A stretch of 64,000 nucleotides of DNA from Cristatella mucedo. Taxonomy: Eukaryota > Bryozoa > Phylactolaemata > Cristatellidae. The notes below the pieces were generated by a model. The model made no database searches, was not told the origin of the DNA, and saw only the letters and a program-made list of their open reading frames with translations. Location of the stretch: assembly GCA_009760855.2 (NCBI GenBank), contig WPIO01000005.1, positions 6,060,001-6,124,000 of the forward strand. Reading direction: 5' to 3'. A program made the position numbers and the translations under genes. This document shows positions 2,976 through 62,704 of this stretch, piece by piece (position 1 is the stretch's first letter; each line of letters starts with the position of its first letter).

Positions 2976-3134
2976 TGGTGGCTTTGTGAAGTTATAGATC
3001 ATAAAGACAACAAATACATGTTCATCCTTCGAGGTTGATGCCTGACCTTGTGAATTATAGTCATGTTAATCTTTGCTAAAGTTTTATGGATTGTGGGAAG
3101 CACACTGATCAATAAAATTTTGTCTACGAGGTTT

Positions 3135-3300
3135 CATAGTAGTTGGCTAAGGTGTTTGCTATCCCTGACCGAGGTCTTGGGTTCGAATTCTGCAGTGGGT
3201 GATCCTTTATTGCCAACTGCAAGAGGAGGCAGTAAAATCCGTTAAGGCTCTTCTACCGATATATATGGGCTGCTAAATCAGCTAATATTTTTTTATTGGT
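3135..3300 (+). mobile_element. SINE-B copy
   Basis: Head with box B-like GGGTTCGAATTCTG, body GATCCTTTATTGCCAACTGC, tail GGGCTGCTAAATCAGCTAA. Confidence 0.8.
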
Positions 3301-4385
3301 CAACTGGTATTTTAATTCCGTTGTGCTATACCGGCAGTCATACCTTGGCAGTTGCAGCAGCTACTGCTACTTCCATCCACTCAGTAGGTCTGTGCATACT
3401 ATTCTTGCAGGAATCTGATAAAGTGGGGATCGGTCGGTAAGAGTAATACATAGCTGTAGTTGATCTTTGTAGTTCCCACATTAGGAGCCCAAAATTGCTT
3501 ATTTCTCAAATGGGTTTGGATATTTCATTTCATTCTATTTTGCACTCAGCGAGGCATCAAGACCTGTAATGAAAGATTAGCTGCTTAATTTTTATTATTT
3601 GCGTTCTTGTCTGAATTGTTGGCACCAACCGTGTGCAGCAGGCATAGACCTCACAGAGCTACCGCCTTGCATATTGACAAGCATTATGACATTGCCTGAT
3701 TACTCACAACTGTCGCTCATCCAGCTCTCAGACATGCTGTTTGTTTAATGTCAGCATTCGTTAACTGTTTGATATGTACTGCCCGATCTCACGGTTTGTG
3801 AATCTCATGAGTTGGGTGGCACCGGTTTTGACCGGAGTTTGTATAATAGCCTGTTGATATCTTTTGAGTTAGTCATGGTACACTACTCAGCAATTGCATG
3901 TCTATGCTTTGCCGACAGCTGTCAGCTGCCTGCCACTATTAGGATGGATTTTGAGCTTTTCATTAATCGGTGCTTGTCAGTTTTAGCCAGCAGGTTTTTA
4001 TGCAATAAGCGATGAGCATTGCCTGTTTCGATATTAGGTACCTTAGGAATTTATGAGACGGATTTTACTAGTGGAAATTTACAGTAGTTAAACCATTATG
4101 ATGGCTTGGTGTAAGGTATCAGAACCTTAGGAGGCTAAGCTCGAATGATCCCTCCCACACAGAGATGTTTGCACACCGGAAAAGTCAATGGAGTCGTCAG
4201 AAAGATACTCAGTAAGCTTAGAAAATGCATGGTAATTTTGCAGAAGTACCCAATCAACGTAAAAGATCACAGAAGGGTGTGTGTGGGTCGGGTCTTGTAA
4301 GCCGAAAATGTGCTCATCCGGCCGAAATTTTCTAATGTTTGTGTGGTAAGAATTTGGCCTGTGCACTTTTAGAAGCCATAAGTGT

Positions 4386-4921: not shown

Positions 4922-25103
<20,182 letters not shown>

Positions 25104-34623: not shown

Positions 34624-35412
34624 AGGTAGGTACGATAGGTACCTGAGTAGTACGATTGTAATTTTTTTTAATTTAGAATCTTAATCACTTGAAACTATGT
34701 GACGCACCTATAAAAACTTACAAAACGAACGACTTGTACGACTGGGGAAAGCACTGTGTGTTAGTTAACTTGCAAGCATGCCTGCGGGCTTAGATTATAG
34801 TTGCTTATTGCATTACCGTGTATACTTGGATGCAGAGAACGACGTACATTAATTACCGCCAGTTGAAACGGAATCTCTTAGCGTAAGCAATAAATAGAGC
34901 TAGCTATCTTGTGATTTCGCATAGTCCTCACTTCAGATCTGCCCGACTAACGTCTGACTGCTTGCTCAACATCTGACTGCATGCTCAATTGCCAGTCACT
35001 ATTAGTGCATTCACTCCTGCAGTCGATGCTTGAGCGTTTGCCATAGTTTTCTCAGCCGACAACCCCAACTAACTAAATTTCTATAGAATGACGCGATTAT
35101 CGAGACGCTGTCCGACATGAGGGTAGGTATGCAAATCACGAAGTTGTGAGCAATTATTGCACTGGCCAACCTCAGTCAGGGAAGGGGTCCTAAATATGCC
35201 CACTAAGACGCTTCGGCTAGTCTTTCTCCTGGTTGCAACTCAAAAATGGGCCTCGGCTTTTGCTCGTGCTCCGAGCAACGCAGAAGACATGGGATGAGTG
35301 ACGAACAATGCGGCTTGCAACAGCTAGTGAGCCAATCGTCAGCGCCTACTGAGCGGGCGCTCAGACGTAACAGTCACGTGACTAGCCTACGTGCGGCTGT
35401 CGAGTTAGATCG

Positions 35413-35607
35413 GTTAGTTCTCAACCTTCCTAATGCCGCGACCCTTTAATACAGTTCCTAATGTTTTGGCGACCCCCAACCATAAAATTATTGTGTGCGA
35501 AATTTGAAAATGCGTGTTTTCCGATGGTCTTAGGGGACCCCTGTGAAAGAGTCGTGCGACCCCCCCCCCAAAAAGGGTTTCGACCCACAGGTTGAGAACC
35601 ACTGTAC
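35413..35607. mobile_element. SPIN-like hAT miniature transposon (MITE)
   Basis: About 195 bp. The right end reads CAGGTTGAGAACCACTG and the left end has TTCTCAACCTTCCTAATGCC then GCGACCCTTTAATACAGTTC. Internal matches include GACCCCCAACCATAAAATTA and TGTTTTCCGATGGTCTTAGG. From memory this is the layout of the SPIN ('Space Invaders') hAT MITEs, with the middle deleted. GTTAGATCG flanks both ends (35404-35412 and 35608-35616), consistent with a target duplication, although the first bases of the left end are altered. Confidence 0.85.
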
Positions 35608-36278
35608 GTTAGATCGTCGTGTGGCGGGGGTGGGGTGGGTGCGGGGCGATGTAATTGCAAAGACTGCAAGCCGTGCTCGCAAGAATGCTAGCAAGCGATG
35701 GCCGTCGATGTACGATTGATTCAACGCTGCAGCGGCTCGTTTTCCGGCGGCGCGGTTCTGCGAGTAAAGCGGACGCAGGCTCGCTTAAGCCAGTCGGCGG
35801 TCCATTAGCAGGCCGCGAGTTGGTCCGCCCCACCGCCGCGCTTGCTCAGCTGGTGCCGTAGCGCATTGCCGTCGAAGGTGCGACCGCTCAGCGAGCGCCT
35901 TTCTTATGAGTACGCGACCTCAAAAATGTCTCAGCGAAAGCATTCCAAGCTTTCTCAGCAGAGGCTCGTTCACGCGTGAACGGTCGAGAAAACTTCGTGA
36001 GCGATCGATGGCAGGACAGGGTAGTACATTTTTTTTTGGGCCGCTTGCTGGGAGTGAGAGGTTAGCGGTTCGCGCCAACGGCGTATTGAGCAGCAATCGC
36101 GCCAGTGGCAGCACTTCCGCACCGCGTAAGACCGCGACTGCAGCGTCGGTCTCGCTTGGCGCGTCGCAACCCTGAGGAGAATTTCAAAAGCTCTAGCTGG
36201 CGGTGGTAGAGCTTTTAGAGCGTGGAATGCGCTCACAAAATTTTTTGGAGCTGAATTCTGCCGCGCGGCCGCCCCTCC

Positions 36279-44300: not shown

Positions 44301-47300
44301 CATACCTTGTGCAATGCTCGATCAATATCATGTAATCATACAATGCTCGATCAATTTCAATGTGACTCTGTCGTTGATCTTAGCACAACTTTCCGACATG
44401 TTCCAGCTTCCAATGTAGCTGGCACCCACTGACAATGCATTGCCACGAATGGCTGAGCCCTAACGTAGTGCACAGCAAAAGAATCATCAGCAAAGTCTTA
44501 CATTTATTTCCTCATTACAGTCGACACTAGTCTTGCCATCAAACAGTAGGCTGCTCTCGTGTAGTTGAATGATCTCTCCTGTATCACTCCGCTTGCCCGT
44601 ACTAAACAGCCAGTCCACACTGTCAGGCTGCACCTCAGGTGGCTCAGTGCTGACATCGCTGCTGCCACGATCCAAAGACGGATCCAATCTTTCCAGGCTG
44701 GATTCGTGCTCCTTCTGCAGCTGCACGTTCAGGCGGCTAGCTTCATTGCGTTTCCTCACTTCCAGCAGGGCTACAAAGGTGTCGTAATTTCTCGGGTCAC
44801 TGTTTGCCACATTTAAAAATCAAAGGCACAAAATCATTATTTCATAACACTAAAAACCGACCGTTGAACTTGGAAAGATTATTGACCTTCAACGTGATAA
44901 AAGCAATTATTAACTATTACAAAAGCAGTGGTGCCTTACCCTATTTTACCAGAAAATGTGTAGCAAAGGGTAACCTCCTGAAACATCAGCCAATGACCTG
45001 CTGAGTAGGCAGGAGGTTCTGTTTAAATGAACATTATTTTCAAGAGAGACAAAAGGATAGTGCATGCACATTTAAGCATGTGTATATGTGTGTGCATCCT
45101 TATGTAATGATATCAGGACGATATAAATGCATTCCCAATACATTGATGCACGCAGTCCACAAAATACACTCCACACCAACTGTGCAAGAATGTCACTGGA
45201 TGGGGATGAACAAAAACAGGCCATGATATGCAAGAAGGCCTGCACAAGTGTACCGGCTTCTACAAGAATAGTCTTAGCAGAAGCATTTTGATAATAGAAT
45301 AAGCTTTTAGATTAATGCAGCAAGGCATACATCTGAAACATGCTGTTGTAGTTTCATATTCTGGAAGACTTCATTGATTGCTTAGATTTGAGCACTGCAA
45401 AACTATGTCACGTGTTTGCATTATTCTTTAGAGACCTGTAATGAGCTATAAGTTGAAATGCGAGCTAAAAAACACAGAAGTAAACAATTCCCAGAAAATA
45501 AAAAAACACGGGTTTTTTCTGTGACTCTATCGCCTATGCTAATTGAGAAATCGCTTCATGAATTGTGTACGGGTTTAGAAGTTTATAGTGTGACCAATGA
45601 GTACACTGGCTTTTATATAGTTCATATAGTTATTTAAGTTGGTGGACGAAAGAAGAGTGTGTGCCACGGTATCCTCATTGGTATGATTATTTTAAGTCTT
45701 GATTTTAGCCACATAAATTATGAGTTATTTGATTCGATCAAATTTGATTTTGAGCCTCATTATATAGCAAATGAGGTTAGTAATTTCACTAACGAATACA
45801 CAGTTTGCTTGCTCTATCGAATGAATCCTTTGTTAAGCTCTACTTGCTGATGTTGCAGTGAGATCGTACACAGAATGTCCGAGGCCTGACTAGCGATGGA
45901 TTTGAATGGTGCTGAAGTGGCCGAGGGTCCGTCAAATCATCATCCATAGTATCGACACAGGTAGTGTCATATGTCGTCTAGTGAATTCTCATAATGCACC
46001 TGACAAGTGGTATATAAACGTTTATTCAGCTCCCCTAAAATAAAGCTCTGAGTGTGGCAGGCGATGCAATAAGTACACGATGCAAGAAAACGTCAATGCG
46101 GTTTCACTATCGTGGGCAATTTGTTCAAGGCTAAGGAGACCATCTTGTCACTTATTCGGCTACTTAGAAATGCTTTGACTACTATTATCCATCACAAGTT
46201 TAGATTAGAAGGAAAAGCAGTGGTTAAGGAAACCGTCGTGGCTAAATTCTACTGTCTTGCATCGAGGTGGTTAAAACAACCACTCGAATTCATAACAGGC
46301 TGCAGATACAGCTGCCATTACTGCCATGCAAAAACTGAACAGCTTTGATGGAGAAACAGTTATTGCAACGGATTCTCAATTCTGAAGGCTTTTATTCGAA
46401 TCCGGATAACAATAATTAGATGCTTGGGTGGAAACCTTAAGAAAACCGGATCTCTTTCTAAGTATTTTGAAGATGGAATATTTTGCTAAACGATTGTAGA
46501 ACCTTTCCCATCGATTGAAACCAAGTGACTAGAAGCAGCATTTATGCCAAACGTTAGTATAGTGCCACGCCTTGTATGTGCAATGGCTGCCAATGACTGC
46601 AGATGAGATGCCAGCAAAGATCAAGCTACAAAAGCATACCATCAACACTATCCTTGATTTTCTTGTTTTCACGTTCCTGCCACAGGCGACGCTCCAGCTG
46701 TTCAGCCTCCACTCCTCCTCGTGCCCAGGCCTCGGCACAAGCACGGTCCTTTGGAAATACTGGCCGATCATCAAGGAACTGTAGATCTTTCTGAAAGCAT
46801 GAAGAAACATCCCCAATGAAACAAAATAATCCACGTTCACAAATACTGCGAGCAGCTAGATGCATATCCGGTGCTATGAACTTAAATTTGAAACCGGAAT
46901 AGACTTGTTGCCACTGCGAAACAAACTCATTGAAGAGACATCTGACATGGCTGCCAGCATGCAGCTTATTAATCCCATGAAAATTCCTTGAAAATGCATT
47001 ATGGAAACTGACCTCCAACCACTCTTTGGGAACTTACAATTCTGATTGTTGCCGTTTTCCTGTAGTTTGGTATTAGCTTAATGAAAGGGTTTCCTGCTGT
47101 ATTCAGCACTCTCTAGAAAAAAAATTGCACAGGCTTAGCACATACACTAAAACATCTGACAATGTTGAACAGAGACTGAATGCAATTTAAAAAAATTAAT
47201 GTGAAAGATCCAACTATACTTGGGCTGGAATAGCCACCAACTGAACCTTTCACTGGCTAGATACTACTTTATGAATCGTATAATGTAAGACTCAAACCCA

Positions 47301-47749: not shown

Positions 47750-50700
47750 TCTGTGTGTGTGTCTCTGTGTGTGTCTGTGTGTGTGTGCGTGCGTGTGGGA
47801 TCTAGGGAAGAAGGGAGAGTAGGCTGATGGGATTTGCTGATGGGTGCTCGGCCATGCCGAAGTCCTGCTTTGCGTATTTATGTGTTTTGAGGCTTGCACT
47901 CACCCGAATGAAGAACATTTGTATCATTCGCGCTTGTATAACGCTGCATGACCTCATTTCTAATTTCAGTGGGCATTTGGAGAAGTTTCACAATACAAGT
48001 CCATGATTGGAGAAAATGCAGTCTATTGACGTCTGATGACGTGCATACCAAAACGAATCCGACCGATATAAGAAACTAATGCTAACAGTGATATGCAAAC
48101 AGAGCTGAACTAGCATCTGAAATTTCACATTGATCCGTCGAGTACTAGCCGAGTTATATAATTTACAAGGCACAAAGCTACACTGTAAATGAAGCTGTTT
48201 GAAAGTCACAAGCATGTACCTCAACAAGCTGCAAACACATACCTCAATATATGACGGTTCAACAAGTTGGGACACAATTCGTATATAAAGCAGATATCAG
48301 TAAATATTTTGTTTGTAGATATCTTACTTCTAGTTTAGTTTCAGGTTAGACGTAGCTTGCCTACTCGTTTCTTAATGCATTCTTTCCATGTGGAAATCTT
48401 CAAAACTTCAGATCCCATTTCTAACATGTTCGTCTTTTGAAAGATACCCTATACAATTATTCGATTGTTAGACTTCTCAGTCTTTTCTCGACATTAGCCC
48501 TTAATTCAATAGGACATGAGACTTCATTATAAGCTATTGATTTGTACGATACAGAAATCGACAAAGTTGGTAATATCTATATCAAGACTATCGTACTGAC
48601 GCTAGCATCCTTTATATCAGGTCGTTCCTGCTACCGCACTAGAAAAGCTCAGCTTACTATCGACAACGAACATTTCCTGGTCGGTTTGATGGTACAATCC
48701 TTGGCGACATAAATCAGAGATATTCATCTGCTTGTACACATCCATCCACGGACGCTAGCTGCTCAGGGCATTGCATTTCTTGTTTGTGCTGACTCATGCT
48801 TCTCAATTAGCATGCTATAGATGTTGAGGGTGGCAAGGAGAGGCACAATGGGCAAACCTTGACCTTACTCGGGCCAGACAATCATAGGTGAGCAAGCCGG
48901 CATGTATTTTACTTCGTCTTCGTCCAAGAGGGCCTCAGTAGAAAAGGGCTGCTGATTGGCACCATTCGGTGCAGCTAGCAGACGACAGTCCATTGCTGCT
49001 AGCTAGAACACGCTTTGCTTTTTCTTGAGTACACCTAGCTTCAGCATTCTAGAAAGTCGACGGGGTTTGGCAGAAAAATAAACAATTCGCATCTAAAAAT
49101 TGTGAGCACCATAAATTCTCTGCTGCGAAAGGATGCTATTTCTTTTATGTGTGCCAATACATCATAGCTAGCACCATAGCTTGCACGGCCGTGCAGCTAT
49201 CAAGCTTTCAAAAAGAGCAGTGCAACCATAAAACTACTTGCCGAACATAGGTGCGGCTTAATCAAGTCTTGGTTATCTTATCCGTGTCCCTACTAATTGT
49301 CGAGAATGTCTTGCAAGACCCGTATGCAGAAATGCATCGATGCTGATGCCTCTGGTGTCCTCACAGATCAGAGTGACCTGTCATGACACCAGGGGACCGT
49401 GTTATCATTCATTGTTCATGTCGTGTTTTACATACAGTAAATAGCACTCTGTCTGCTGAATGAGTCTCGGCCAGTTGCTCGTACGACCGTGTTCAACGTA
49501 GATGCTCAATGTGACTACGCTGTTTGCAGCCACTGCATGAACACACATTGCACACAAGTTAGGCATACACTCGGACAGGGGTGGCAGGTTGTAAAAATTA
49601 CATTGGCCTGCCTGTGGACAGGTTAAACTCCCATCCGTCAAAATCATCTCATGAGACCGGCAAGACACGGTGCTCCATTGTCGAAAGGTAAGCACGATGA
49701 AAGCCCAGACTGCTTCGATCACGCTACACAAGACCGATTCTGTACACTCAGCACTAGTGACCCACTCGGTATCACTTACGAGGGCAGGCATGTCAGCAAA
49801 GACGGTCAGAACTTCTTCATCCTCTAATTTGTTGTGCGATATATCAAGACAAGACAGCTTCTGGCAGCCGACAAGGTGCCGGATGTCTGTAGCTGATGTC
49901 AGGTGATTGTGCGATATCTGCAGAGTGCTCAGCAGCGGTAGACAGTCTACAACCATTTTACGCAGCATAGTACCAGTAGTATACCAGGGGTGGCAGGTAT
50001 CAACACGCATCCGGGCATCACTTACCGATGTTCTCGATGACACGAATGAGATTGTTACAGAGGTTGAGTGTACACAGGTTCTGCAGAGGCTCGAGGTTCT
50101 GGATCTTCTGGATGAGGTTCTGCTGAAGGTACAAGCAGCGCAACTGGGTCTGAGCATGCAGATTCTTAATCTCCTTTATGCCATTGCATTCAAGCCAGAG
50201 GCACTTGAGGCCTGTGTACTCGTCCAGGTTCTCTATCTCGTAGAGGCCTGCAAGACACGAAACCGTGGCTGGGCACACTGGGGCACACACGAAAAGTGTC
50301 GATTGCTCGTTTTAGGATGTTTAGAGGAAGTAGCAATCTGCTGGATGCACACAGTTATGGGAGTGTGTGTGCACGTACGTGTGTGTGTGTGTGTGTGTTT
50401 GTTGTAAGAAGAGACGCATAGCACACATAAGAAACAGGCAGCAACAAAACACACCACAAGAACCGCTCTGCCACAAATCCACACGCCTATGAAGGCCTCA
50501 AGGGTGTATTTCGATTGTGCCCTTACTTGGGCCTACACCCTATAGCCAACTCTACAGCCAGCTTCCTTAACACTCTTCCCTCTGCCATTAAATACATGCA
50601 GTGCAAAAAATTCTCACACTATGGCCACAGCTGTTGTTGCAGTAAACTCGTTTGGGTAATAAGTGGATGCAAAGCATGTGAAAATACTTATTTGCAACCC

Positions 50701-50815: not shown

Positions 50816-53800
50816 TTTAGTGCTACCTCATCTCATATCTCATCGCAATTATTTATGACCTCCCATGCCTGGCCAGCTTTTGTGCAGTCGTAAATTGTAG
50901 CACATTCCAAAGAGCCCAAGTTTTACTGGACAGTTCGGCTACTGGTGTAGGCTGAACACACGGCCTCGGCCACCTGTCGATATTGCTCGTAGTTTTATAA
51001 GATTCAAATCAGGCCTCTGTCTGAGCCACTGCACCTGCACCAAATAAGGATTCGTCAAAGCGTACTTTACTCAAGTCATTGTTGATCAAGAAAAGAGGAT
51101 TTCACGGCTCATATACTCTATTTGGGGGTCGCTACATTTGGCAGCAAAGTAACGACCCTAAGAAAACTGCGTAGCAGGTGAAGTAAATTTTGACAAATCC
51201 TTGTTTGGTCTGGTGCAGCGGCTCAGTCAGCTGCCTAATTGGCAAGTGTATGTAGGCCCCGTGTCCTGGTGGCCCACTTGCGATTCTGAATCTCCAGTCG
51301 ATTAGTTCGAAAAAGTGGCAAAAGGCTTTCGAAGAAAGGTTTGCTACAAAAAGTCCTCTGTAAATGCCCCAAAGCGCCCAAGTGCCACAGTGCTTATCTT
51401 GAAGGTGTGGAGTGACGTTTCGGTTGAAGAAATGTACATGTTTGCATTAGGCTTTACAGGAATAGGGAAGATATGGCTTCTGGGATACAGCATAAACAAT
51501 AACACTGGTTAACTACATCTTCAGCTTGATGATTAGCAAGCCAAGCCTGTATGCTGTGATCAGCACATCAGGTTACGAACGAACTACACAGGCTACTCAT
51601 GGAGCCTCGGTAAATGAGTGTGGTCAATTGGCTGCTGACTGAGGCCCAATGAGATAATTACCTTTGTAGTGTAGATAGAGTACATCATTGAGTGCTGGCG
51701 TCATATATAGCTTCAGCTGTTTGCAGTGGTCTCGGAGAAACGCTTTGGTAATGCTGCAATTCAGCAGGGCACAGGAATGTCATACTTGTTGGCAAAACCG
51801 TCTCAGCATGCGGTTAGGCTTACTGTCAGCTCCTGGGCACACCACTCAGGTTCAGGACAAGAGACAGGCAGCAGAGTGAACAAGGCCAGTGTCGGCTGAC
51901 AGGGGTGACTGGTAGCTGTGGTATAGAGAAAACAACCGTGAGACTTTAAAGTGCATATCTGTACGTAAGTGTACGCTACACTATGTATAATTGCCTCTGG
52001 GTCTTACTCCAGGAGCTAAGGTGCTCACTCTTCATGACCCGGGTCGTAGGTTCGAGTCCTGAAGTGGACAATCCTTTATTGTTCACTGCAAGCGATGGTG
52101 ATAGCCGTTAAGGCTCTTCGGCCACTACATAAATGAGGCTGTTAAATAAGCTAAGCTTAGGAAAGGTAGGGAGCATAGTTATTTGAGGGAATAATAATAA
52201 TGATAATAATAATGCACTTGATAAAGCACCCTCAGAGAACTCAATCTCTCTCTAGGCGCTTTACAATTGCTGCAAAGGGAAATGCAATTGAATGGTGTGT
52301 AATATCATGCTTGATAAACAAACAAAATGAATAATATGGCTAGGGGTGACATGCACAGGGTCAGCATGCAAATGTGGTTAGTGCAAGCATGCACAGTGTC
52401 AGTACGCATAAGCACATGAAGGACGAATCACAGGGACCCACCAAATGCTGTCCTAAATAGGTGTGTTTTTAAACTCTTTTTAAGTGTGATTAAGTTAGGG
52501 GATGTTGTGACGCAAAACAGGAGTGAGTTCCAGGCTTTAGGAGCATACGAAATAAAGGCACGGTCTCCAAAGGATTTAAGGTTTGTACGAAGTATTGGTA
52601 AACTGTTGGATTCCGAAAAACGGGTGGTACGATGCTTGGCCTAGTGGTGGAGTAGATCTGAGAGATAGGCTGGAGCCAAAGAATGAAGTGACCTAAAAGT
52701 GAGCGACAAAACCTTGAAGTCGATCCGTTGCTTGACTGGTAGCCAGTGCTGGTCGGCAAGAAGTGGTGTAATGTGTCAACTGCGACGCTCACGACAGACA
52801 AGCCAAGCTGCCGAGTTTTGCACCAGCTGCAATCGCCTAATTGCACATGCCGGTAAGCCAGCAAGCAGTGAGTTACAGAAGTCAAGACGGAATGTCACAA
52901 ATGCATGGACCAACTTGGACGTGGTATCCTTATCTAAACAAGCCCGAATTTTAGCAATGGTATGTAGCTGAAAATAGGCTGATTAGACTGTGGAGCTGAT
53001 ATGGTCGTCTAACGAGAGGTCACTTTGGAATATGACACGTAGATTTCGAGCTGATTCAACAGGAGATATGCTGGAAGAGCCAATTTTGAGTGTCAGCCTT
53101 TCCAATTTGTGAATCACACTGGATTTGCTCATAACTAGTAAGTTAGTTTTGTCATCGTTTAGTTTTAGAAAATTTGCTGCCATCCATGTGCGGCTGTCAT
53201 CAATACATGCAGCAAGTGAGTTGAGAGAATTTGAGGAGCTCGAAGGCTGGGAGGGATCAAAGCAAAGGTACAACTGAGTGTCATCAGCATAGAAGTGAAA
53301 GCCTAGATTGTGCTTGGCAATCACATCAGCAAGAGGCAGAGTATAAACCGTGAAAAGAACCAGACCTAGCACGGAGCCCTGAGGTACCCCATATTTCATA
53401 GGTACCTCGGATGATCTTTGTCCATTCACATCAATACTCTGGAGTCTCCCACTGAGATAGGATCTGAACCACTGCAGAGCAGTGCCAGTGATGCCCAGGC
53501 GAGATGAGAGGCGCTCTTGAAGAACTTTGTGATCAATGGTATCAAAAGCTGCCGAAAGATCGAGCAAAACAAGCAGAGACACTCTACCTATGTCTGCATT
53601 CCTAAGTAGGTCGTTGTATATGCTAAGCAATGCTGACTCTGTGGAGTGACTAGCTCTAAAGCCAGACTGGAACTTACTAGCAAGGTGTGAGGTTTCGATA
53701 TATGTGTTCAGCTGGTCCGCCACGACCCGTTCCACTGTCATTGATAAGAATGGTAGAAGGGAGACTGGGCGGTAGTTGCTTAAGTTCTCTTGGTCTAGTG

Positions 53801-56800
53801 TAGCTTTCTTGAGAAGTGGCATGACTACAGCTTTTTTGAAAGGTGCTGGGACATGACCTGAGGCTAATGACATATTAATGATGTTAGTTATGCATGGCAG
53901 CAGCAGATCAATGCAACGTAGGAGCAGGACAGTGAGAATAGGGTCCAGAGGACTTGTTGTCTTCTTTGATTGAGATACAAACTTCAGGACTAGATCACTA
54001 GTTACCTGCTTAAATGTAGACATCGAGGTGCAGCCAGGAATCGGGGAACAGCATTCTAGTGGGGATGTTGTCATCGCAGGGATGGATTCCCCGATCTTGT
54101 CTATCTTCTGCACAAAGAATCGAGAGAAGCAATCGGCTAGATCATCACAAGGATCATCCGGTAAGGAGCTAATCTGGGAGCGGTTGAGGAGATGGTTGAT
54201 CGTCGACATCAGCATTTTTGGATTGTGCATCTGTGATTCAACAATGTTTCTATAGAAGCTAGACTTGGCCTTGGCTAGGATCGATTGGTAGGACCTACAG
54301 TAGTTTTCACATGCCTGTCGATGGACAGTCAGCCCAGATCTTTTGTATGCTTTTTCAAGCTTTCGCTTAGTAGACCTGGCTAGTTTAATGTCTGTGGCAA
54401 ACCATAGGCCGTCTGGGCGCCTCCCCCCCCCACAGTGCGCTTTGTCAGAGGTGCAAACTCGTCGAGCGTGTCAGCTAGTGTCGTGCTGTAGCTGGCCGTG
54501 ATGGCACACTAGGTAAGGCGCCAGCTTTCACGACCTCGGTCCCGAGGTCGTGGGTTCGATTCCTGCGGTGGGCGATCCTTTATCGCCACTGCAAGCAGTA
54601 GTGATAGCTGTAAAGGCTCTTCTGTCGCAATACAAAAAGAGGCTGTTTAATCAGCTAGGATTTATTTATTATTATTTACCAATGATGACAGATCGGAGGG
54701 AGGACTGAGCAGCAGAGGTGAAACAGATATTCTTGCAAGGACAGCATCGATGTCAAAGGTCTTGAGGTTTCGTGATTCACAGGTTATTTTAGAGGAGGAG
54801 GTGGGCACACACTGTAGATTGAATGAGTTCTGCAGGGAAGCTTTTTTTATTGGGCTTTGCCCTATATGTTGTCTGAATGGCGCACCTCTTCGTAAGCCAT
54901 GATTAGCACTAGTCCCATTCAAGAAGCGCTGCCCATGAGGACACTGCGATACTGAATGCTCGAGGCCGGACGGGATGTTCGCATGCATAGGGACAGCGAA
55001 GCACTAGGATGCAAAGCGCCTGCTACTTGCCTCCGTCCATAATTGTATTCAGCCATCAAGACCAAGCAGCCATTATGCTGACGGCTATTTAACTACTGCA
55101 CTCATAACCAAAGTGACTCTTGGGGTGCGACTGGTAGCTCCCATACCGAGTTCATTTCGTGCGATAGAGAACAACTCGAGGAGCTCAGATAGGTTGGTCG
55201 ATGAAGTACGTCGAAGAGCTCAGTCACTAACAATCTTATCATGCTGACCCTGTGGATGTCACCTGTAGCCATGTTATCCTTGTTGACATTGTGCATGCTA
55301 TTACTAACCATCGTTAGTGCTTGCTGGCATACTGGCCTTCAATCTCAGACGCTTACAGCTGGTAAAATTAATATGTCATTAGCCTCAGGTCAGGTCCCAG
55401 CACCTTTCAAAAAAGCTGTAGTCAGGCCACTTCTCAAGAAAGCTACACTAGACCAAGAGAACTTAAGCAACTACCGCCCAGTCTCCCTTCTACCATTCCC
55501 ATCAAAGACACTGGAACGGGTCGTGGCGGACCAGCTGAACTCGTATATCGAAACCTCACACCTTGCTAGTAAGTTCCAGTCTGGCTTTAGAGCTAATCAC
55601 TCCACAGAGTCAGCATTGCTTCGGGTATACAACGACCTACTTAGGAATGCAGACATGGGTAGAGTGTCTCTTCTTGTTTTGCTCGATCTTTCGGCAGCTT
55701 TTGATACCATCGATCACAAAGTACTTCTAGAGCGCCTCTCATCTCGCCTGGGCATCACTGGCACTGCTCTGCAGTGGTTCAGGTCCTATCTCAGTGGGAG
55801 ACTCTAGAGTGTTGACGTGAATGGACAAAGATCATCTGAAGTACCTCTAAAATATGGAGTACCTCAGGGCTCTGTGCTAGGTCCGGTCCTTTTCACCGTT
55901 TATACTCTCCCTCTCGCTGATGTGATTGATAAGCACAATCTAGGCTTTCACTTCTATGCGGATGACACTCAGTTGTACCTTTGCTTTGATCCCTCCCAGC
56001 CTTCGAGCACCTCAAATTCTCTCAACTCACTTGCTGCATGCATTGATGACATCCGATTATGGATGGCAGCAAATTTTCTAAAACTAAACGATGATAAAAC
56101 TAACTTACTAGTTATGGGCAAACCTAGTGTTATTCAGAAATTGGAAAGGCTGACTTTCAAAATTGGCTCTGCCAGCATATCTCCAGTTGCATCAGCTCGA
56201 AATCTAGGTGTCATATTCCAAAGCGACCTCTCGTTAAACGACCACATCAGCTCCACAGTCAAATCAGCCTATTTTCAGCTTCATAACATTGCTAAAATTA
56301 GGGCTTGTTTAGATAAGGATACCACGTCCAAGTTGGTCCATGCATTCGTGACATCTCGTCTCGACTTCTGCAACTCACTGCTTACTGGCCTACCAGCATG
56401 TGCGATCAGGCGATTGCAGCTGGTGCAAAACTCGGCAGCTAGGCTTGTCTGTCGTGAGCGTCGCAGTTGCCACATTACTCCACTTCTCGCCGACCTGCAC
56501 TGGTTACCAGTCAAGCAACGTATTGACTTCAAGGTTTTGTCGCTCACTTTTAGGTCTCTTCATTCTATGGCTCCAGCCTATCTTTCAGATATACTACCCC
56601 ATCAGGCAAAGCATCGTACCACTCGCTTTTCGGAATCCAACAGTCTAGAAATACCTCGTACAAACCTTAAATCCTTTGGAGACCGTGCATTTAGCTCGTA
56701 TGCTCCCACAGCCTGGAACTCCTTCCCGACCTGCATCAGAACATCCCCTGACCTGATCACATTTAAAAGAAACTTAAAAACATACCTATTTAGGACAGCA

Positions 56801-58660
56801 TTTGGTGGGTCCCTGTGATTCGTCCTCGATGTGCTTATGCGTGCTGACACTGTTCATGCTGCCACTAACCACATTTGCATGCTGACCCAGTGCATGTAAC
56901 CCCTAACCATGTTATTCATTTTGTTTGTTTTTCAAGCATGATTTTACTTACTATTCTATTGCGTATCACTTTGCAGCAAATGTAAAGCGCCTAGAAAGAG
57001 ATTAAGTTCTCTGAGGGCGCTTTATCAAGTGCAATATTATTATTATTATTATTAAAAAACTCTGCAGCTAGGCTTGTCTCTCGTGAGGGTCGCAGTTGCC
57101 ACATCACACCACTTCTTGCTGACCTGCAGTGGCTCCCAGTCCAGCAACGCATCGACTTCAAGGTTTTTCCACTCACTTTCAGGTCCCTTCATTCTTTGGC
57201 TCCAGCCGACCTATCAGATTTACTCCCCCACCAGAGTAAGCATCGTACCACCTGGTTTTCGGAACCTAACTGTATACCTATACTTTTGGAGATCGTGCCT
57301 TTTGTTCGCATGTTCCTAAAGCCTGGAACTCACTCCCGACTTGCATCACGACATCTCCTGACTTGACAACATTTAAAAAGAAACTAAAAACGCACCTATT
57401 TATGTCAGCATTTGGTGGGTCCCTGTGATTCGTCCTTTATGTGCCTATGCGTGCTGACACTGTGCTTGCTGCCACTAATCATACTTGCATGCTGACCCTG
57501 CACATGTCACCCCTAATAATGCTATTCTTATTGTTTATTAAGCATGCTACCACTAACCATTCCATCGTTCTTTCTTTGCAGCAATTTTAAAGTACCTAGA
57601 TATTGATTGAGCTTTCTGAGGGTGCTTTATCAAATGTATTATTATTATTATTAGTATCTGATCATGCTGATCATGCTTCCTTTACAGCATACATAAAGTG
57701 CCTAGAAAGAGATTAAGTTCTCTGAGGGAGCTACACAAGTTTATTATTATTATTATTAAGAAGAAGAAACATCAGCTAATGACGACACTGCAGAGAAAAT
57801 AGATAGAGAGGGTGACACGAGAAAAATGTACCACTATCGCACATTAATCGAAGCAGTGCATTTCACAGTTTGGGATACACAGAGCGATAGCACCCCGTGG
57901 TTCGAACTCGAAAAGAAAGGGCAGCTAATTCCTTACCACAAGAAAACCAGTGGGTATGAGAAGGCTAATAGCGTTGTAACAACTCGGTTAGCAGGAGCTA
58001 GGGAGGCGTGACAGGAGTGCATGAGGAGGGTAAGAACTTGGGCTCATATCCACAGTTCAATCGGCCAGCCACTACCACCACAGCCTCTTTAACAAAGAGG
58101 ATGCGTAGCTTACTATTGATTTAAAGATTGGCCTAGTGGTCACACTTAGGACGGCCAATGGGGGATTTTCGGCAGCCTAACAAAAAAAGAGAGTTAAAAC
58201 AGCCGAGCCCAGAGAGAACCTGAGCAAGTGTAAGCTAGTGAACAAGCAAAAAGCACAGGGCTCACCGTGGATAATCAGCTTTTTTGGAGCTGCTGTCCGG
58301 CTCACCGCTTGCCTGGCCTGCCTCGGTTTTCGGCTGTAATTCGCCATAGATACCAGTTTGATCAGCTTTCTCAGTTGGTACTGTCGAGTTGTCTGCCTTT
58401 TCCCCTTCGGTCACCACTGGTTCAGAGCCTTCCGGGCTTGGTTCTTGGAGAGATGCAGTCGTTTCTATGGCGACGGGGCTGCTGCTGGTCTCATCAATAG
58501 CCTTAGTGTCATCGCACAGTAAAGCATTTACCGAGCTCTTGCCTGTATCGATTTCCATATCGTCGGAGCAAAACTCGGGGGCCTCTGTATAGAGCCGTTG
58601 GTCGTTGTAGGTGATGACGAGTGAGTTGCTATTATTTTCATTAGCAATCCTTTCTTCCAT
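38204..58660 (-). CDS. DNAAF1: Dynein axonemal assembly factor 1 (LRRC50), multi-exon gene
   Basis: Gene span on the - strand; exons are listed separately. DNAAF1 is a cytoplasmic LRR protein needed to preassemble outer and inner dynein arms before import into cilia. The exons encode, in order, an acidic low-complexity N-terminus, [23 protein letters not shown]22-like LRRs, an LRR cap with [11 protein letters not shown], and the near-invariant [20 protein letters not shown] signature. A charged helical linker, a [10 protein letters not shown] motif and a Ser/Thr-rich C-terminus follow. About 588 residues are visible, against 725 in human. Two phase mismatches (46640 to 44799, and 44135 to 39467) show that one small exon is missing at each place. 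Intron 1 (6.5 kb) holds L2-like LINEs in both orientations and SINE-B copies. Confidence 0.95.
39396..39467 (-). CDS. DNAAF1: DNAAF1 exon, [10 protein letters not shown] motif
   Basis: 72 nt, 24 codons, acceptor TTTAACAG and donor GAG|GTGGGA. It encodes [15 protein letters not shown] and ends RVISE, resembling vertebrate DDLPDLEDDDE in the acidic C-terminal region. It needs phase 0 input, so another exon (length 3n+2) must lie between it and 44135. Confidence 0.75.
39866..39955 (-). mobile_element. L2-like LINE 3' tail
   Basis: Hairpin-forming 3' end with a short ATT repeat, in the DNAAF1 intron next to the exon at 39396-39467. Confidence 0.8.
41060..41440 (+). mobile_element. Second LINE family, 3' end with (ATTAC)n tail
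   Basis: The coding end reads [20 protein letters not shown] and then [11 protein letters not shown]. This is the usual C-terminal end of CR1/L2-superfamily ORF2 proteins, but it differs from the main family here. The 3' UTR ends ATTACATTACATTACA. The same 3' UTR recurs at 4386 and 33946. Confidence 0.7.
42072..42160 (-). mobile_element. SINE-B 3' half, inverted partner
   Basis: Reverse-strand 3' half of SINE-B. It matches 42266-42358 in the opposite orientation, so the two form an inverted repeat. Confidence 0.82.
42195..42360 (+). mobile_element. SINE-B copy
   Basis: Box B-like GGATTCGAGTCCTG, body CGATCCTTTATTGACTACTG, tail GGGGCTGTTAAATCAGCTTA. Confidence 0.85.
42462..42622 (-). mobile_element. 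SINE-A copy with internal duplication
   Basis: Hairpin tail next to ATTTATTTGTATAGCGC. The CGACCTCGGTCATCAAA segment of the head is present twice (about 42542 and 42571). Confidence 0.8.
43892..44032 (-). mobile_element. SINE-A copy next to a DNAAF1 exon
   Basis: Reverse strand copy with all parts recognisable. It lies about 100 bp from the DNAAF1 exon at 44135-44276, on the gene's sense strand. Confidence 0.85.
44135..44276 (-). CDS. DNAAF1: DNAAF1 exon, C-terminal linker
   Basis: 142 nt, entered in phase 0 and left in phase 1, acceptor CAGTTGCAG and donor CAGTG|GTGAGT. It encodes [20 protein letters not shown] and later [14 protein letters not shown]. The phase agrees with the exon at 44502. 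There is no strong family match; assignment rests on position, splice sites and open frame. Confidence 0.65.
44502..44799 (-). CDS. DNAAF1: DNAAF1 exon, charged linker
   Basis: 298 nt between acceptor GGCAAACAG and donor AAT|GTAAGA. It is open in one frame, with [20 protein letters not shown], then acidic and Ser-rich sequence ending SVDCNEEIN. The charged helical character suits the region after the DDRPVF signature, but sequence similarity is low. It needs phase 2 input while the preceding known exon gives phase 1, so a small exon (length 3n+1) lies between them. Confidence 0.75.
44800..46639. other. DNAAF1 intron(s), missing small exon expected
   Basis: AT-rich. Phase arithmetic requires a small exon of length 3n+1 on the - strand here; I could not identify it. 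No transposon was recognised. Confidence 0.5.
46640..46790 (-). CDS. DNAAF1: DNAAF1 exon, [21 protein letters not shown] signature
   Basis: 151 nt, entered in phase 0 and left in phase 1, acceptor GCTTTCAG and donor GATG|GTATGC. It carries [20 protein letters not shown], essentially identical to vertebrate DNAAF1, then a charged helix ([18 protein letters not shown]). This is the most diagnostic exon of the gene. Confidence 0.98.
47038..47112 (-). CDS. DNAAF1: DNAAF1 exon, last LRR and cap start
   Basis: 75 nt, 25 codons, phase 0/0, acceptor TTTTTCTAG and donor ATT|GTAAGT. It encodes [20 protein letters not shown] followed by ATIRI, the equivalent of vertebrate [25 protein letters not shown]. 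Confidence 0.95.
47262..47348 (-). mobile_element. tRNA-like SINE head fragment
   Basis: The reverse strand shows an AGGTGCCCGAACG... head and box B-like GGGTTTGAGTC. It cannot be assigned to SINE-A or SINE-B. Confidence 0.45.
47518..47642 (-). mobile_element. SINE-A copy bordered by a compound microsatellite
   Basis: Degraded reverse-strand copy; its head abuts the (GA)n(GT)n repeat at 47658. It lies in a DNAAF1 intron. Confidence 0.7.
47658..47800 (+). repeat. (GA)n(GT)n compound microsatellite
   Basis: About 27 GA units joined to about 20 GT units, then GTCTCTGTGT variants, in the DNAAF1 intron. Confidence 0.97.
47801..49779. other. DNAAF1 intron, nothing recognised
   Basis: No repeat family or open frame of note. 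Confidence 0.5.
49780..49946 (-). CDS. DNAAF1: DNAAF1 exon, LRRs 5-6
   Basis: 167 nt, entered in phase 1 (G+AC makes Asp) and left in phase 0, acceptor TGGTTGTAG and donor CTC|GTAAGT. It encodes [20 protein letters not shown] and later [17 protein letters not shown], ending ADMPAL. These continue the LRR register of the previous exon. The larger open frame around it (49405-50157) is mostly intron read-through. Confidence 0.97.
50026..50247 (-). CDS. DNAAF1: DNAAF1 exon, LRRs 1-4
   Basis: 222 nt, entered and left in phase 1, acceptor GTCTTGCAG and donor ATCG|GTAAGT. It encodes four SDS22-type 22-residue repeats, beginning [20 protein letters not shown] and including [20 protein letters not shown]. 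It is very close to vertebrate DNAAF1 [20 protein letters not shown]. Confidence 0.98.
50376..50403 (+). repeat. (GT)n microsatellite
   Basis: Short run in the DNAAF1 intron. Confidence 0.9.
50725..50815 (+). repeat. (GT)n microsatellite with GCATGC core
   Basis: GT runs flank GCATGCGCATGCATGCGTGC, an alternating purine-pyrimidine tract of about 90 bp. Confidence 0.95.
51662..51753 (-). CDS. DNAAF1: DNAAF1 exon, [11 protein letters not shown] / [11 protein letters not shown]
   Basis: 92 nt, entered in phase 2 and left in phase 1, acceptor AATTGCAG and donor AAAG|GTAATT. It encodes [20 protein letters not shown] followed by [10 protein letters not shown]. Vertebrate DNAAF1 has [31 protein letters not shown] at this place. 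Confidence 0.96.
52000..52160 (+). mobile_element. SINE-B copy
   Basis: Head with AGGTTCGAGTCCTG, body CAATCCTTTATTGTTCACTG, tail AGGCTGTTAAATAAGCTAA. It lies beside the 3' end of the LINE at 52190. Confidence 0.82.
52190..54480 (-). mobile_element. L2/CR1-like LINE copy, longest, 5'-truncated and disabled
   Basis: The - strand carries the linker between endonuclease and reverse transcriptase (54250-54480, including [20 protein letters not shown]). A 415-codon reverse transcriptase frame follows (52983-54230) with [29 protein letters not shown] and the catalytic [13 protein letters not shown] stop at 52983 replaces a Lys codon seen in sister copies. The C-terminal domain (52490-52885) is shifted to another frame. 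The 3' hairpin and (ATT)n tail lie at 52190-52265. The copy sits in DNAAF1 intron 1 on the same strand as the gene. Confidence 0.93.
54490..54675 (+). mobile_element. SINE-B copy at the 5' break of a LINE
   Basis: Best-preserved SINE-B: box A-like TGGCCGTGATGGCACACTAGG, box B-like GGGTTCGATTCCTG, body CGATCCTTTATCGCCACTGC, tail GAGGCTGTTTAATCAGCTAG. An ACGACCTCGGTCCCGAGGTCGT palindrome sits in the head. It lies where the LINE at 52190-54480 stops. Confidence 0.88.
55366..57053 (+). mobile_element. L2/CR1-like LINE copy, 5'-truncated, one in-frame stop
   Basis: It starts abruptly inside the reverse transcriptase ([19 protein letters not shown]) and runs to the (ATT)n tail. It is open except for one TAG near 55806, a Gln codon in sister copies, which splits it into frames of 188 and 333 codons. 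It contains [20 protein letters not shown], the YADD motif and a C-terminal domain ending FRTAFGGSL. The 3' UTR ends in the GCGCC...AGAGA...TCTCT...GGCGC hairpin. It is the most intact RT region in the window. It lies in DNAAF1 intron 1, opposite to the gene. Confidence 0.95.
57054..57651 (+). mobile_element. L2-like LINE 3' fragment joined to the tail of the previous copy
   Basis: It starts with the coding part equivalent to [19 protein letters not shown] right after the (ATT)n tail of the copy at 55366-57053. It continues through the frameshifted C-terminal domain and 3' UTR to another ATT repeat. It is more diverged than its neighbour. Confidence 0.88.
57652..57759 (+). mobile_element. L2-like LINE 3' tail, third in series
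   Basis: A short 3' end only (TTTACAGCATACATAAAGTG onwards, hairpin, then ATT repeats), placed directly after the (ATT)n of the preceding fragment. Confidence 0.8.
58266..58660 (-). CDS. DNAAF1: DNAAF1 exon with start codon, acidic N-terminus
   Basis: 395 nt from ATG at 58660 to donor CCACG|GTGAGC, leaving phase 2. It encodes [14 protein letters not shown] and then an acidic, Ser/Glu-rich, probably disordered stretch ending KKADYPR. The vertebrate protein also has an acidic variable N-terminus just before the conserved R-MTK-L-LC segment, and the next exon continues exactly there. A possible acceptor (ACCTTAACAG) lies about 20 nt upstream of the ATG, suggesting a separate non-coding first exon. 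Confidence 0.85.
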
Positions 58661-58715: not shown

Positions 58716-60210
58716 AAATAATAATAATAATAATAATAATAACAATGCACTTGATAAAGCGCCCTCAGAGAACTTAATCTCTTTCTAGGCGCTTTACATT
58801 TGCTGCAAAGAAAAATGCAATTGAATGGTAAGTAAAATCATGCTTGAAAAATAAATACCATGAATAATAGGGGTGACATGTTAGGTTAGGGGTGACATGC
58901 ACAAGGTCAGCATGCAAATGTGGTTAGTGGCAGCATGCACAGTGTCAGCATGCATAAGCACATGAAGGACGAATCATAGGGACCCACTGTATGCTGTCCT
59001 AAATAGGTGTGTTTTCAAGTTCCCTTTAAATGTGGTCAGGTCAGGGGATGTTCTGACGCAGGTCGGGAGGGAGTTCCAGGCTTTGGGAGCATACGAACTA
59101 AATGCACGGTCTCCGAAGGATTTAAGGTTTGTACGAGGTATTTGTATACTGTTGGATTCCGAAAAGCGGGTGGTACGATGCTTGGCCTGATGGGGTAGTA
59201 TATCTGAGAGATAGGCTGGAGCCATAGAATGAAGAGACCTAAAAGTGAGCGGCAAAACCTTGAAGTCAATCCGTTGCTTGACTGGTAGCCAGTGCCGGTC
59301 GGCAAGAAGTGGTGTAATGAGTCAACTGCGACGCTCACGACAGACAAGCCTACCTGCGGAGTTTTGCACCAGCTGCAATCGCCTGATCGCACATGCTGGT
59401 AGGCCAGTAAGCAGTGAGTTGCAGAAGTCGAGACGGGATGTCACGAATGCATGGACCAACTTGGACAAGGTATCCTTATCTAAACAAGCCCGAATTTAAG
59501 CAATGTTATGGAGCTGAAAATAGGCAGCTTTGACTGTAGAGCTGATATGGTCGTCTAACGAGAGGTCGCTTTGGAATATGACACGTAGATTTCGAGCTGA
59601 TGCAACAGGAGATATGCTGGCAGAGCCAATTTTGAGAGACAGCCTTTCCAATCTCTGAATCACAGTGGGTTTTCCCATAACTAGTAAGTTAGTTTTGTCA
59701 TCGTTTAGTTTAAGAAAATTTGCTGCCATCCATGTGCGGATGTCATCAATACATGCAGCAAGTGAGTTGAGAGAATTTGAGGTGCTCGAAGGCTGGGAGG
59801 GATCAAAGCAAAGGTACAATTGAGTGTCATCCGCATAGAAGTGAAAGCCTAGATTGTGCTTGGAAATCACATCAGCAAGAGTGAGAGTATAAACCGTGAA
59901 AAGAACCGGACCTAGCACGGAGCCCTGAGGTACTCCATATTTCAGAGGTACTTCAGATGATCTTTGTCCATTCACGTCAAAACTCTGGAGTCTCCCACTG
60001 AGATAGGACTTGAACCACTGCAGAGCAGTGCCAGTGATGCCCAGGCGAGATGAGAGGCACTCTAGAAGAACTTTGTGATCGATGGTATCAAAAGCTGCCG
60101 AAAGATCGAGCAAAACAAGCAGAGACACTCTACCCATGTCTACATTCCTAAGTAGGTCGTTGTATACCCCAAGCAATGCTGACTCTGTGGAGTGATTAGC
60201 TCTAAAAGTG
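58716..60210 (-). mobile_element. L2/CR1-like LINE copy immediately upstream of the DNAAF1 coding start
   Basis: Truncated at 60210 within the RT (the STESAL-GVYNDL region). The 226-codon frame 59496-60176 has [27 protein letters not shown] and the YADD motif; a second frame (58974-59392) holds the C-terminal domain. The (ATT)n tail reads 58716-58742. The element runs in the same direction as DNAAF1 and ends about 55 bp before its ATG. Confidence 0.94.
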
Positions 60211-62704
60211 GCAGATGCAGCACGGCACGAATTCTTGTCTTCCTAACACGGGGTTGGATTTGCAAGATTGTATGATATGCCTCTCATGACCACAGCAGTT
60301 ATACAGAAATCACCTACATCTCACCACACATCCAAACGCCAAACTGATTACTGCATCTCCAAAAGTGCTTGTCTCACACAAGCAATGTTGGTAGATTGAC
60401 GTGCACCAAAAGACATGCAATACTCATGCCATTTAAAATATAAGTACAGCACTTGCTGATCATATTTGATCAAGGTCCTGTAAGTGAACCTATGGAGTGG
60501 CACAACCTGATTTGGCATCCGAGCGATACGTGACACTGACATCTTGTCCGGTAATAGCTGCATTTTAAATATCATATTTTGGCCTGATCAATAATGAAAA
60601 TGCAAAAGCGATCACGGCCTTCAAAGGCGGAAGAAATAAGGAAGGAAGGATTAGTCAGAAGTGTGCAAAACCACCTATGGATTTCTTAGTGACCTAGCTA
60701 GAACAGGCATAGACAAAGAAGGAAATGTTTATGACTGATTTTGATGCTATTAAGCCATTTCCGCAATCCAACAAAAGCCCAATCGAGCCCACTACTGCAA
60801 GAGATTTCAGAGGCGAGATTGACACTAGACTTTCCAACTCCAGTATGCCTTTCTCTACGGCCCCGTCTTGTCGAGTTAATCAAGTGGGGCTTGTGAGTCG
60901 CACTAACTTTTGTGTGAACACCACCTTCAATCCCGCAAGACTATTTAATTCATTAAGAAACCTCTTTATGTTTGCATTAAATACAGAAATCAAATTTGAG
61001 CAGACCGTCAAAGGCGAGGACAGCCGCACTGTCGAGTCGTAGCTGATAGGAGGAAAGTGAGAGGCAGGCATGGATCGTGCGACGGGAAAATGTAAAAAAA
61101 ACTACGGTGAAACAACCATGACGCTCAACCAACAACCATGACATGTAACAACCATGACGCTCCGACATGCTTTCCTTAGAGGCCACCAACGGGCGCAGGC
61201 TGCCATTAACTCTCACTTTAGCGTCAAAAACTAAAGAGTAGCAGTAGAGAAGCTCTACAGCTGGGCGCCTATAGGTCTGCAGAGAGGAATAGAACAGCCG
61301 GTATATAAAAAATGGCAAAAAATTGTATATGTGTTCTTTATGCGTCCGTATATTTTGCCTGTTGGCTCCTTACGGAGGTATGGAACGGTTGGGGCTGCTC
61401 CTGCTGGCTATCCCTTACCACCGATTATAAGACCAGGACCGATTGACTTGTACTAGGCTCATAGTCAGGATGTTATAAGTGCTTCCACCAGATATCCAGT
61501 AATACTACATACCGCAGATTAGCCGATATTTCTATCAGAGCTTCCTTACGAGAGAGAAGACGCAGTATCGTCAAACAGCAGGCTGCAGAGGCATGGCATA
61601 AGATGGGCGTCTTCGCTATAGCAACGGTTCTACCGATAGTATGAATGTTCTCTTGTAGATATAGAAATGTTCAAACTTATTGAAAATAAAATTCAAATTC
61701 AGCATATATATTTTGATTTCATTCAATAGATCAATGTTTTGCAGCGAAATACGTTTGCCTTTCCTTACTTCCGCTTTTCATCGAACGCCCCCGTGCTCCG
61801 CTACCGCTGTTTACCCGGGGTTTGCGTTGGTGGGTCGGTGTAGCCTCCGGATAAACACATGAATGGCTAGCGGCCATTCTAATCACACCAGGCACCTCTC
61901 GTAAGTAATACAGACGAGCGTCTGCGCGTGTCTTTGCTGAAGCTCGCGCTCTCCCGGCGTCCAATCGGTCGACCGGTTGCCCGTCGGCGGTCGCGCCTGA
62001 CGGCGCGCTTCTGCGTGCCAGGCTTCGGACCGCTCGCGACACTCGCTGTGGTGCATACTGTAGCCTGCTTATCTACTGGTGTTCATTTTGATTCGGTAAG
62101 ATGAGAACAAGGGTGACATGGATGGTGTCGTAGCGGTCGGTTTCCCTGACCTCGGCGAAGACATATTGACCTGTAGCTTAGATCGAAGCTAATTTTATTG
62201 ACCTGCGTGACTCGCCGAAAAGTGATCGCCGTCTGTTCCCCATCTCATTTCGCGCAAACTCGCATGAAAGATCATACCTTAGGATGGTCATAATCCATTC
62301 TGAGAGTTACTCGAAGCGTCAATATGGTTTCGCACTTCCTAAAATGCTACTTTCTTGTCGACACGATATCAATTAGGCGGTGTGCTTTCTGATTGTTTGT
62401 GATAAGATCTGGCGTGCCAGAAAATTAGGCAGTCATTAAGCTATCCTTGCCGACTTTCAGGACTTGGTCGTGGGTAAGCACATCCTTCCATCGGCGAGAC
62501 CTTCCTTTTTAACTTCACGACAGGCGAAGCTACTCCACCGACGACTTGGGACATCCACGTGATATGTAGATGTGATCCTCTATGAAATACCTCACGTTAT
62601 AAGATCACAGTAGTTTGTCCTGAAACCGCCTGTTTTTGCACAATCTATCTTATGGTAATTGTGGTCTCGCGAAAAGGGATTACTACTGTGCTCCCCTGTA
62701 GCTA
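60211..62704. other. Upstream of DNAAF1, GC-rich patch at 61.75-62.08 kb
   Basis: Mostly AT-rich DNA with a CpG-rich patch. On the - strand this patch ends in a donor-like CGGAA|GTAAGG (about 61768). It is a candidate promoter and leader exon for DNAAF1; on the + strand GATTCG|GTAAGA at 62096 is an alternative donor. Confidence 0.4.

What the first reader, a model, noticed from the sequence alone, without database searches (positions are those of the whole stretch)
35413..35607. SPIN-like hAT miniature element in an invertebrate-looking genome
Ends and internal blocks match, from memory, the SPIN family. SPIN was reported as horizontally transferred among tetrapods and also found in a triatomine bug and a pond snail. 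Close similarity to vertebrate copies would mean lateral transfer into this lineage. The middle is deleted, leaving about 195 bp.
Basis: partly seen in the sequence, partly recalled or inferred. Interest (0 to 1): 0.8.

Follow-up and report, generated by a model that had tools for sequence, protein, structure and literature searches.

The report
SPIN jumping-gene remnant in an invertebrate
This is a short, dead copy of SPIN, a jumping gene known for hopping between very different animals, sitting in the genome of an unnamed invertebrate that carries more than a thousand such copies.

Summary
The finding is real. The window holds a ~196-bp hAT MITE (about 35411-35606) with degraded inverted ends and a Buster-type 8-bp target duplication (AGTTAGAT/CGTTAGAT). 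It belongs to a large host family: a 25-bp left-end word occurs, with up to 3 mismatches, at 1,330 genome sites, the reversed word at 0. The window copy is 91% identical to a 187-bp consensus of 39 other copies. Against a 15-copy host consensus it agrees at 80/81 (left), 125/129 (non-coding middle) and 84/84 (right) positions, with one replaced block. Four of five fetched loci with a Buster-type transposase motif carry SPIN end sequence on both sides; no whole close transposase was found. The mitochondrial COX1 frame is broken in the vertebrate code, open in invertebrate codes. Such non-coding identity across phyla means horizontal transfer, if the recalled reference is vertebrate SPIN; no vertebrate sequence could be fetched. 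SPIN in invertebrates is already in print. New host, known kind.

The parts
35403..35410 (.). left target-site duplication AGTTAGAT (nnnTAnnn phase)
   Evidence: read from sequence; 9-bp direct repeat D4 overlapping it; TSD phase of family copies
35411..35606 (+). SPIN-like non-autonomous hAT (Buster-type) element, short subfamily, ends degraded
   Evidence: alignment to the 187-bp host consensus: 171 matches, 16 mismatches, 6 gap columns; 260 bits
35417..35427 (+). preserved left part of the terminal inverted repeat (GTTCTCAACCT)
   Evidence: inverted repeat I1
35417..35492 (+). SPIN left-end block, 97.4% identical to long-form host consensus positions 6-81
35493..35507 (+). junction: long-form positions 82-230 are missing, 15 bp of different sequence instead
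   Evidence: alignments to short and long consensus
35508..35604 (+). SPIN right-end block, 86.6% identical to long-form consensus positions 231-321; contains an expanded C run
35589..35599 (+). preserved right part of the terminal inverted repeat (AGGTTGAGAAC)
   Evidence: inverted repeat I1
35607..35614 (.). right target-site duplication CGTTAGAT (7 of 8 identical to the left one)
   Evidence: read from sequence; direct repeat D4

Best explanation
The feature is one dead copy of a short non-autonomous SPIN element (SPACE INVADERS, hAT superfamily, Buster family). SPIN entered this invertebrate lineage by horizontal transfer. An autonomous ~3-kb element supplied a Buster-type transposase, which cut and pasted internally deleted 321-bp and 187-bp derivatives into nnnTAnnn targets, leaving 8-bp duplications. 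The element later died out: a few broken autonomous relics remain beside more than a thousand short copies. Shown: copies, ends, duplications, long form, broken coding relics between SPIN ends, host not a vertebrate by mitochondrial code. Inferred: transposase action, horizontal transfer as the cause of the identity, loss of activity. Not known: donor, direction, date, host species.
For: Flanking 8-mers identical at 7 or more positions in 33 of 52 copies, against 42 of 2,652 flank pairs from different copies; TA at positions 4-5 in 83 of 104 flanks (54 copies in, 2 dropped because an end was too degraded). nnnTAnnn 8-bp duplications are reported for TcBuster, and SPIN is placed in the Buster family (passages of PMC3499496). 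Recalled 311-bp SPIN_NA matches host copies nearly end to end in 35 of 43 rows; consensus identities 80/81, 125/129, 84/84. 1,330 left-end sites, reversed control 0. Of the best 5 of 40 transposase-motif places, fetched, 4 carry SPIN end sequence on both sides (in L099 and L101 the outermost 46-50 bp of one end lie beyond the fetched stretch); L103 is whole at 3,110 bp with ATTTAGAT on both sides. The N-terminal search scored 138 of 138 candidates and found close relatives at 5 places, all broken or fragments. The COX1 frame is 201 residues in the vertebrate code but 517 in code 5, and the contig is tied to the nuclear assembly by a 96-97% identical copy on a 5.6-Mb contig.
Against: The vertebrate SPIN reference is recalled, not fetched. 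Scans for SPIN words in viral contigs and genome contigs, for the 311 bp in plasmids and phages, and for SPIN words in paper text found nothing to anchor it. Of 4 relic protein pieces scanned, the only hAT match in Pfam is E 0.13, below cut-off, and it comes from L100, the one locus without SPIN ends in the fetched stretch; pieces of L103 (two) and L099 gave none. Two pieces found no PDB chain. So the Buster assignment of the transposase rests on a typed motif and on position. One block differs from recalled SPIN_NA (14 bp there, 27 bp in the host). 19 of 52 copies lack duplications of 7 of 8 or better.
Confidence: 0.9

Rival explanations
1. A host-specific hAT/Charlie MITE that shares only the short conserved ends with SPIN, with no horizontal transfer.
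For: Termini of vertebrate Charlie-type elements resemble each other (recalled); the only SPIN reference here is recalled.
Against: The non-terminal AT-rich middle of recalled SPIN_NA matches the host consensus at 125 of 129 positions, score 229 against at most 32 in 500 shuffles.
Confidence: 0.04
2. The SPIN copies are vertebrate contamination of the assembly.
For: None found; contamination is a common cause of apparent transfer.
Against: 1,330 left-end sites, the first 100 listed lying on many contigs, and copies on the window's own 13.6-Mb contig. The copies form a short subfamily and are 3-9% (short form) and 6-13% (long form) diverged from their consensus. The relics L099, L101 and L103 lie on contigs of 12.8, 24.8 and 5.8 Mb.
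Confidence: 0.01
3. Transfer ran the other way or through a third party: an invertebrate lineage such as this one was the reservoir and vertebrates were infected later. (This overlaps the best explanation, which leaves direction open.)
For: Relic autonomous copies are 77-85% identical to each other, so SPIN is not recent here; a snail has a SPIN-like hAT too (passage of PMC5440852).
Against: No tree of SPIN sequences could be built without other species' copies, so there is no positive evidence for this direction.
Confidence: 0.25

Closest known systems
SPIN / SPIN_NA (SPACE INVADERS), hAT superfamily, Buster family
   Same: Inverted ends CAGTGGTTCTCAACC..GGTTGAGAACCGCTG, 8-bp nnnTAnnn duplications, subterminal blocks and middle of SPIN_NA (SPIN reference recalled), non-autonomous amplification to more than a thousand copies.
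   Different: A 187-bp short subfamily with its own junction; one block of the long form differs from recalled SPIN_NA (14 bp there, 27 bp here); no whole transposase found.
SPIN-like hAT of the snail Biomphalaria glabrata (~1,000 copies)
   Same: Invertebrate host, similar copy number, no intact transposases in that assembly (passage of PMC5440852).
   Different: No sequence was available for comparison; host species here unknown.
SPIN_NA_12_RP / SPIN_NA_13_RP of Rhodnius prolixus
   Same: SPIN in an arthropod, attributed to transfer from tetrapods (passages of PMC11614815).
   Different: Rhodnius feeds on vertebrate blood; the habits of the present host are unknown because its species is unknown.
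TcBuster
   Same: Same hAT family and TSD consensus nnnTAnnn (passages of PMC3499496).
   Different: TcBuster is an active element from a beetle; the relics here are broken.

Membership tests
SPIN | Terminal inverted repeats of SPIN type | tested here: met
   Consensus ends CAGTGGTTCTCAACCT / AGGTTGAGAACCGCTG; the window copy keeps 11 nt of each. SPIN reference recalled.
SPIN | 8-bp target duplication with central TA (nnnTAnnn) | tested here: met
   33 of 52 copies at 7/8 or better, TA in 83 of 104 flanks; window copy 7 of 8 (read).
SPIN | High DNA identity to SPIN_NA beyond the ends, including the non-coding middle | tested here: met
SPIN | Autonomous partner encoding a Buster-type hAT transposase between the same ends | tested here: inconclusive
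   4 of 5 fetched motif loci carry SPIN end sequence on both sides, frames broken; Pfam hAT dimerisation only E 0.13, below cut-off, and from the fifth locus.
SPIN | Identity to vertebrate copies exceeding vertical expectation | not testable with these tools
   No vertebrate DNA collection is available; scans for stray vertebrate copies were empty.
hAT MITE | Short, TIR plus 8-bp TSD, many copies | tested here: met
   187-bp and 321-bp consensus, TSDs, 1,330 left-end sites.

The most novel reading that the evidence does not exclude
SPIN invaded a lophotrochozoan lineage outside the snails, in a phylum or class where it is unreported, at ~98% identity (289 of 294 positions) to mammalian SPIN_NA outside one replaced block; this would be a new cross-phylum jump without an obvious blood-feeding or parasite link, and the host could be a relay or source rather than an end point.
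Probability: 0.35. Interest if true: 0.6.

Novelty: new member of a known kind. Interest (0 to 1): 0.4.

Why it matters
SPIN is a standard example of DNA transposons crossing phyla. Each further non-vertebrate host narrows the possible routes. This host carries long non-autonomous copies, a short subfamily and autonomous relics, so it could be placed on a SPIN tree to test who infected whom.

Tried and rejected
Looked for an in-session vertebrate SPIN reference: exact SPIN words in viral contigs and genome contigs, the recalled 311 bp against plasmids and phages, SPIN words in paper text; all empty. The original SPIN papers are not held, so what they say is recalled or taken from citing papers. 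The abundant hAT family found through Pfam PF05699 (138 matches, 150 of 766 candidates scored) was considered as the SPIN partner and set aside: none of its 30 fetched loci matched the SPIN ends at E 0.01. Those loci reach 1.5 kb past the domain on the 3' side, but on the 5' side they stop inside the long frames, so only one end was really tested. Molluscan haemocyanin (PF14830) gave no match in the host, but no control rang either, so this says nothing firm. Haemerythrin (PF01814) was asked for and not answered. No Rfam family at gathering score and no tRNA in the window. Passages in PMC3621081, PMC10711439, PMC5791352 and PMC3513734 added nothing on SPIN hosts. Contamination and a host-private hAT MITE were considered and set aside as told under rivals.

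Full report
What is there. It has an 11-nt perfect inverted repeat near its ends and a 9-bp direct repeat outside them. Read in the phase of the host family (TA at positions 4-5), the target duplication is AGTTAGAT at 35403-35410 and CGTTAGAT at 35607-35614 (7 of 8), which makes the element about 35411-35606. Its outermost left bases are degraded (CGGTTAGTTCTC instead of CAGTGGTTCTC), and two extra bases follow CACTG on the right. The 187-bp family consensus scores 260 bits here; its hits elsewhere in the window reach at most 24.7 bits, and the best of 200 shuffles 31 bits.

The family in the host. The window is part of a 13.6-Mb contig of a 572-Mb genome in 688 contigs. Searching it with the element gave 40 matches, the window included; 40 of 2,220 first-look candidates were scored. 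I fetched the 39 others with flanks. Their majority consensus is 187 bp with ends CAGTGGTTCTCAACCT / AGGTTGAGAACCGCTG; the copies are 91.4-96.8% identical to it and the window copy 91.4%. These copies were chosen by likeness to the window copy, so they are not a fair sample of divergence. A 25-bp word of the left end occurs, with up to 3 mismatches, at 659 + 671 = 1,330 sites; the same word read backwards occurs at 0. Of 54 copies (39 short, 15 long) two (L046, L094) were dropped because an end was too degraded. Of the remaining 52, 33 have flanking 8-mers identical at 7 or more positions (13 perfectly), against 42 of 2,652 flank pairs taken from different copies, and TA stands at positions 4-5 in 83 of 104 flanks. 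Published work gives nnnTAnnn 8-bp duplications for TcBuster and puts SPIN with the Buster elements (passages of PMC3499496).

Is it SPIN? Thirty-five of the 43 rows returned span nearly the whole 311 bp, at 80-87% identity for single copies; the other 8 rows are partial; 40 of 2,285 first-look candidates were scored. A majority consensus of the best 15 is 321 bp. Against the recalled sequence it is identical at 80 of 81 left-end positions, 125 of 129 middle positions (with one 3-bp gap) and 84 of 84 right-end positions; the middle scores 229 where 500 shuffles gave at most 32. Over all aligned columns, including one replaced block (14 bp in the recalled sequence, 27 bp in the host), identity is 295 of 308, 95.8%, plus 16 gap columns. 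Two cautions. The 15 copies were chosen by likeness to the recalled sequence, which leans the consensus towards it; the short consensus, chosen without it, gives the same 80/81 and 84/84. An invented middle could not match unseen host DNA in this way; what rests on memory alone is the label 'mammalian SPIN_NA'.

The autonomous element. I fetched the best five. Four (L099, L101, L102, L103) carry SPIN end sequence on both sides; in L099 and L101 the outermost 46-50 bp of one end lie beyond the fetched stretch; in L100 no SPIN end lies within the fetched 3.3 kb. L103 is 3,110 bp with the perfect duplication ATTTAGAT; L102 is a 1,123-bp internally deleted form with ATTTAGTG on both sides. Their coding remains are cut by stops and frame changes; the longest open piece in the transposase region is 192 residues, in L103. 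A search with that piece scored 138 of 138 candidates and found close relatives at five places (C133, C676, C111, C658, C332 near 4.2 Mb), all broken or fragments; the remaining matches are distant, 27-38% identical. The relics are 77-85% identical to each other. So an autonomous element was once here, amplified its short derivatives, and decayed. The protein itself could not be confirmed: of four relic pieces scanned, only the piece of L100 reached the Pfam hAT dimerisation model, at E 0.13 and below its cut-off, and two pieces found no PDB chain.

The host. COX1 lies on a 21-kb contig. In the vertebrate code its longest frame is 201 residues; in codes 5, 9, 13, 21 and 24 it is 517. AGR as serine, in the conserved stretch NNMSFWLLPP (recalled), and AAA as lysine fit code 5 best; that choice is my reading. 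The contig belongs to this genome: a nuclear copy on a 5.6-Mb contig is 96-97% identical to it. Naming the frames by recall, the order ND1-ND6-CYTB-ND4L-ND4-ND5 on one strand is a lophotrochozoan (mollusc-like) arrangement. Molluscan haemocyanin was not found, but that search had no positive control. Species and phylum remain unknown.

How it got there. Non-coding DNA at 97-100% per block between a mammalian reference and an invertebrate cannot be vertical descent over more than 500 million years (established knowledge of neutral divergence), so horizontal transfer follows if the recalled label is right. SPIN is reported to have moved between vertebrates and the bug Rhodnius (passages of PMC11614815), to have colonised squamates (passage of PMC11008031), to be in a turtle at 385 copies (passage of PMC4054807), and to resemble a ~1,000-copy hAT of the snail Biomphalaria (passage of PMC5440852). 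The original SPIN papers are not held; the pond-snail report is recalled. My searches for SPIN in print cover open-licence papers only; I opened passages of nine listed papers and saw no further invertebrate host in them, which does not show that none is in print.

Verdict. It is a further host of a known, famous traveller: interesting, not categorically new.

Noticed in passing
window 46626-47033 (-) and 49405-50175 (-): Stretches that by recall resemble exons of dynein axonemal assembly factor 1; Pfam gives only weak leucine-rich-repeat matches below cut-off for the second and nothing telling for the first.
   Followed up: partly
window 52983-54470 (-), 55205-56818 (+), 59496-60242 (-), 7892-8302 (-): Frames of similar sequence that look like copies of one non-LTR retrotransposon; the first matches reverse transcriptase RVT_1 at E 8.8e-28, the others were not scanned.
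   Followed up: partly
L054-L083 (G000, many contigs): A hAT family with more than 50 places of equal or nearly equal Pfam Dimer_Tnp_hAT score, a number of them in open frames of 635-642 aa, so perhaps recently active; no SPIN ends in the stretches fetched.
   Followed up: partly
L051-L053 (G000 contig C688, 21 kb): Mitochondrial contig with repeated blocks: the same 96-residue frame recurs at 11632-11919 and 13747-14034 (+) and 3078-3365 (-); the frames named ND2 and COX2 by recall lie on the strand opposite to the other genes.
   Followed up: partly
L049 (G000 contig C166 near 4.375 Mb): A long nuclear copy of mitochondrial DNA, 96-97% identical to the mitochondrial contig over two stretches.
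   Followed up: partly
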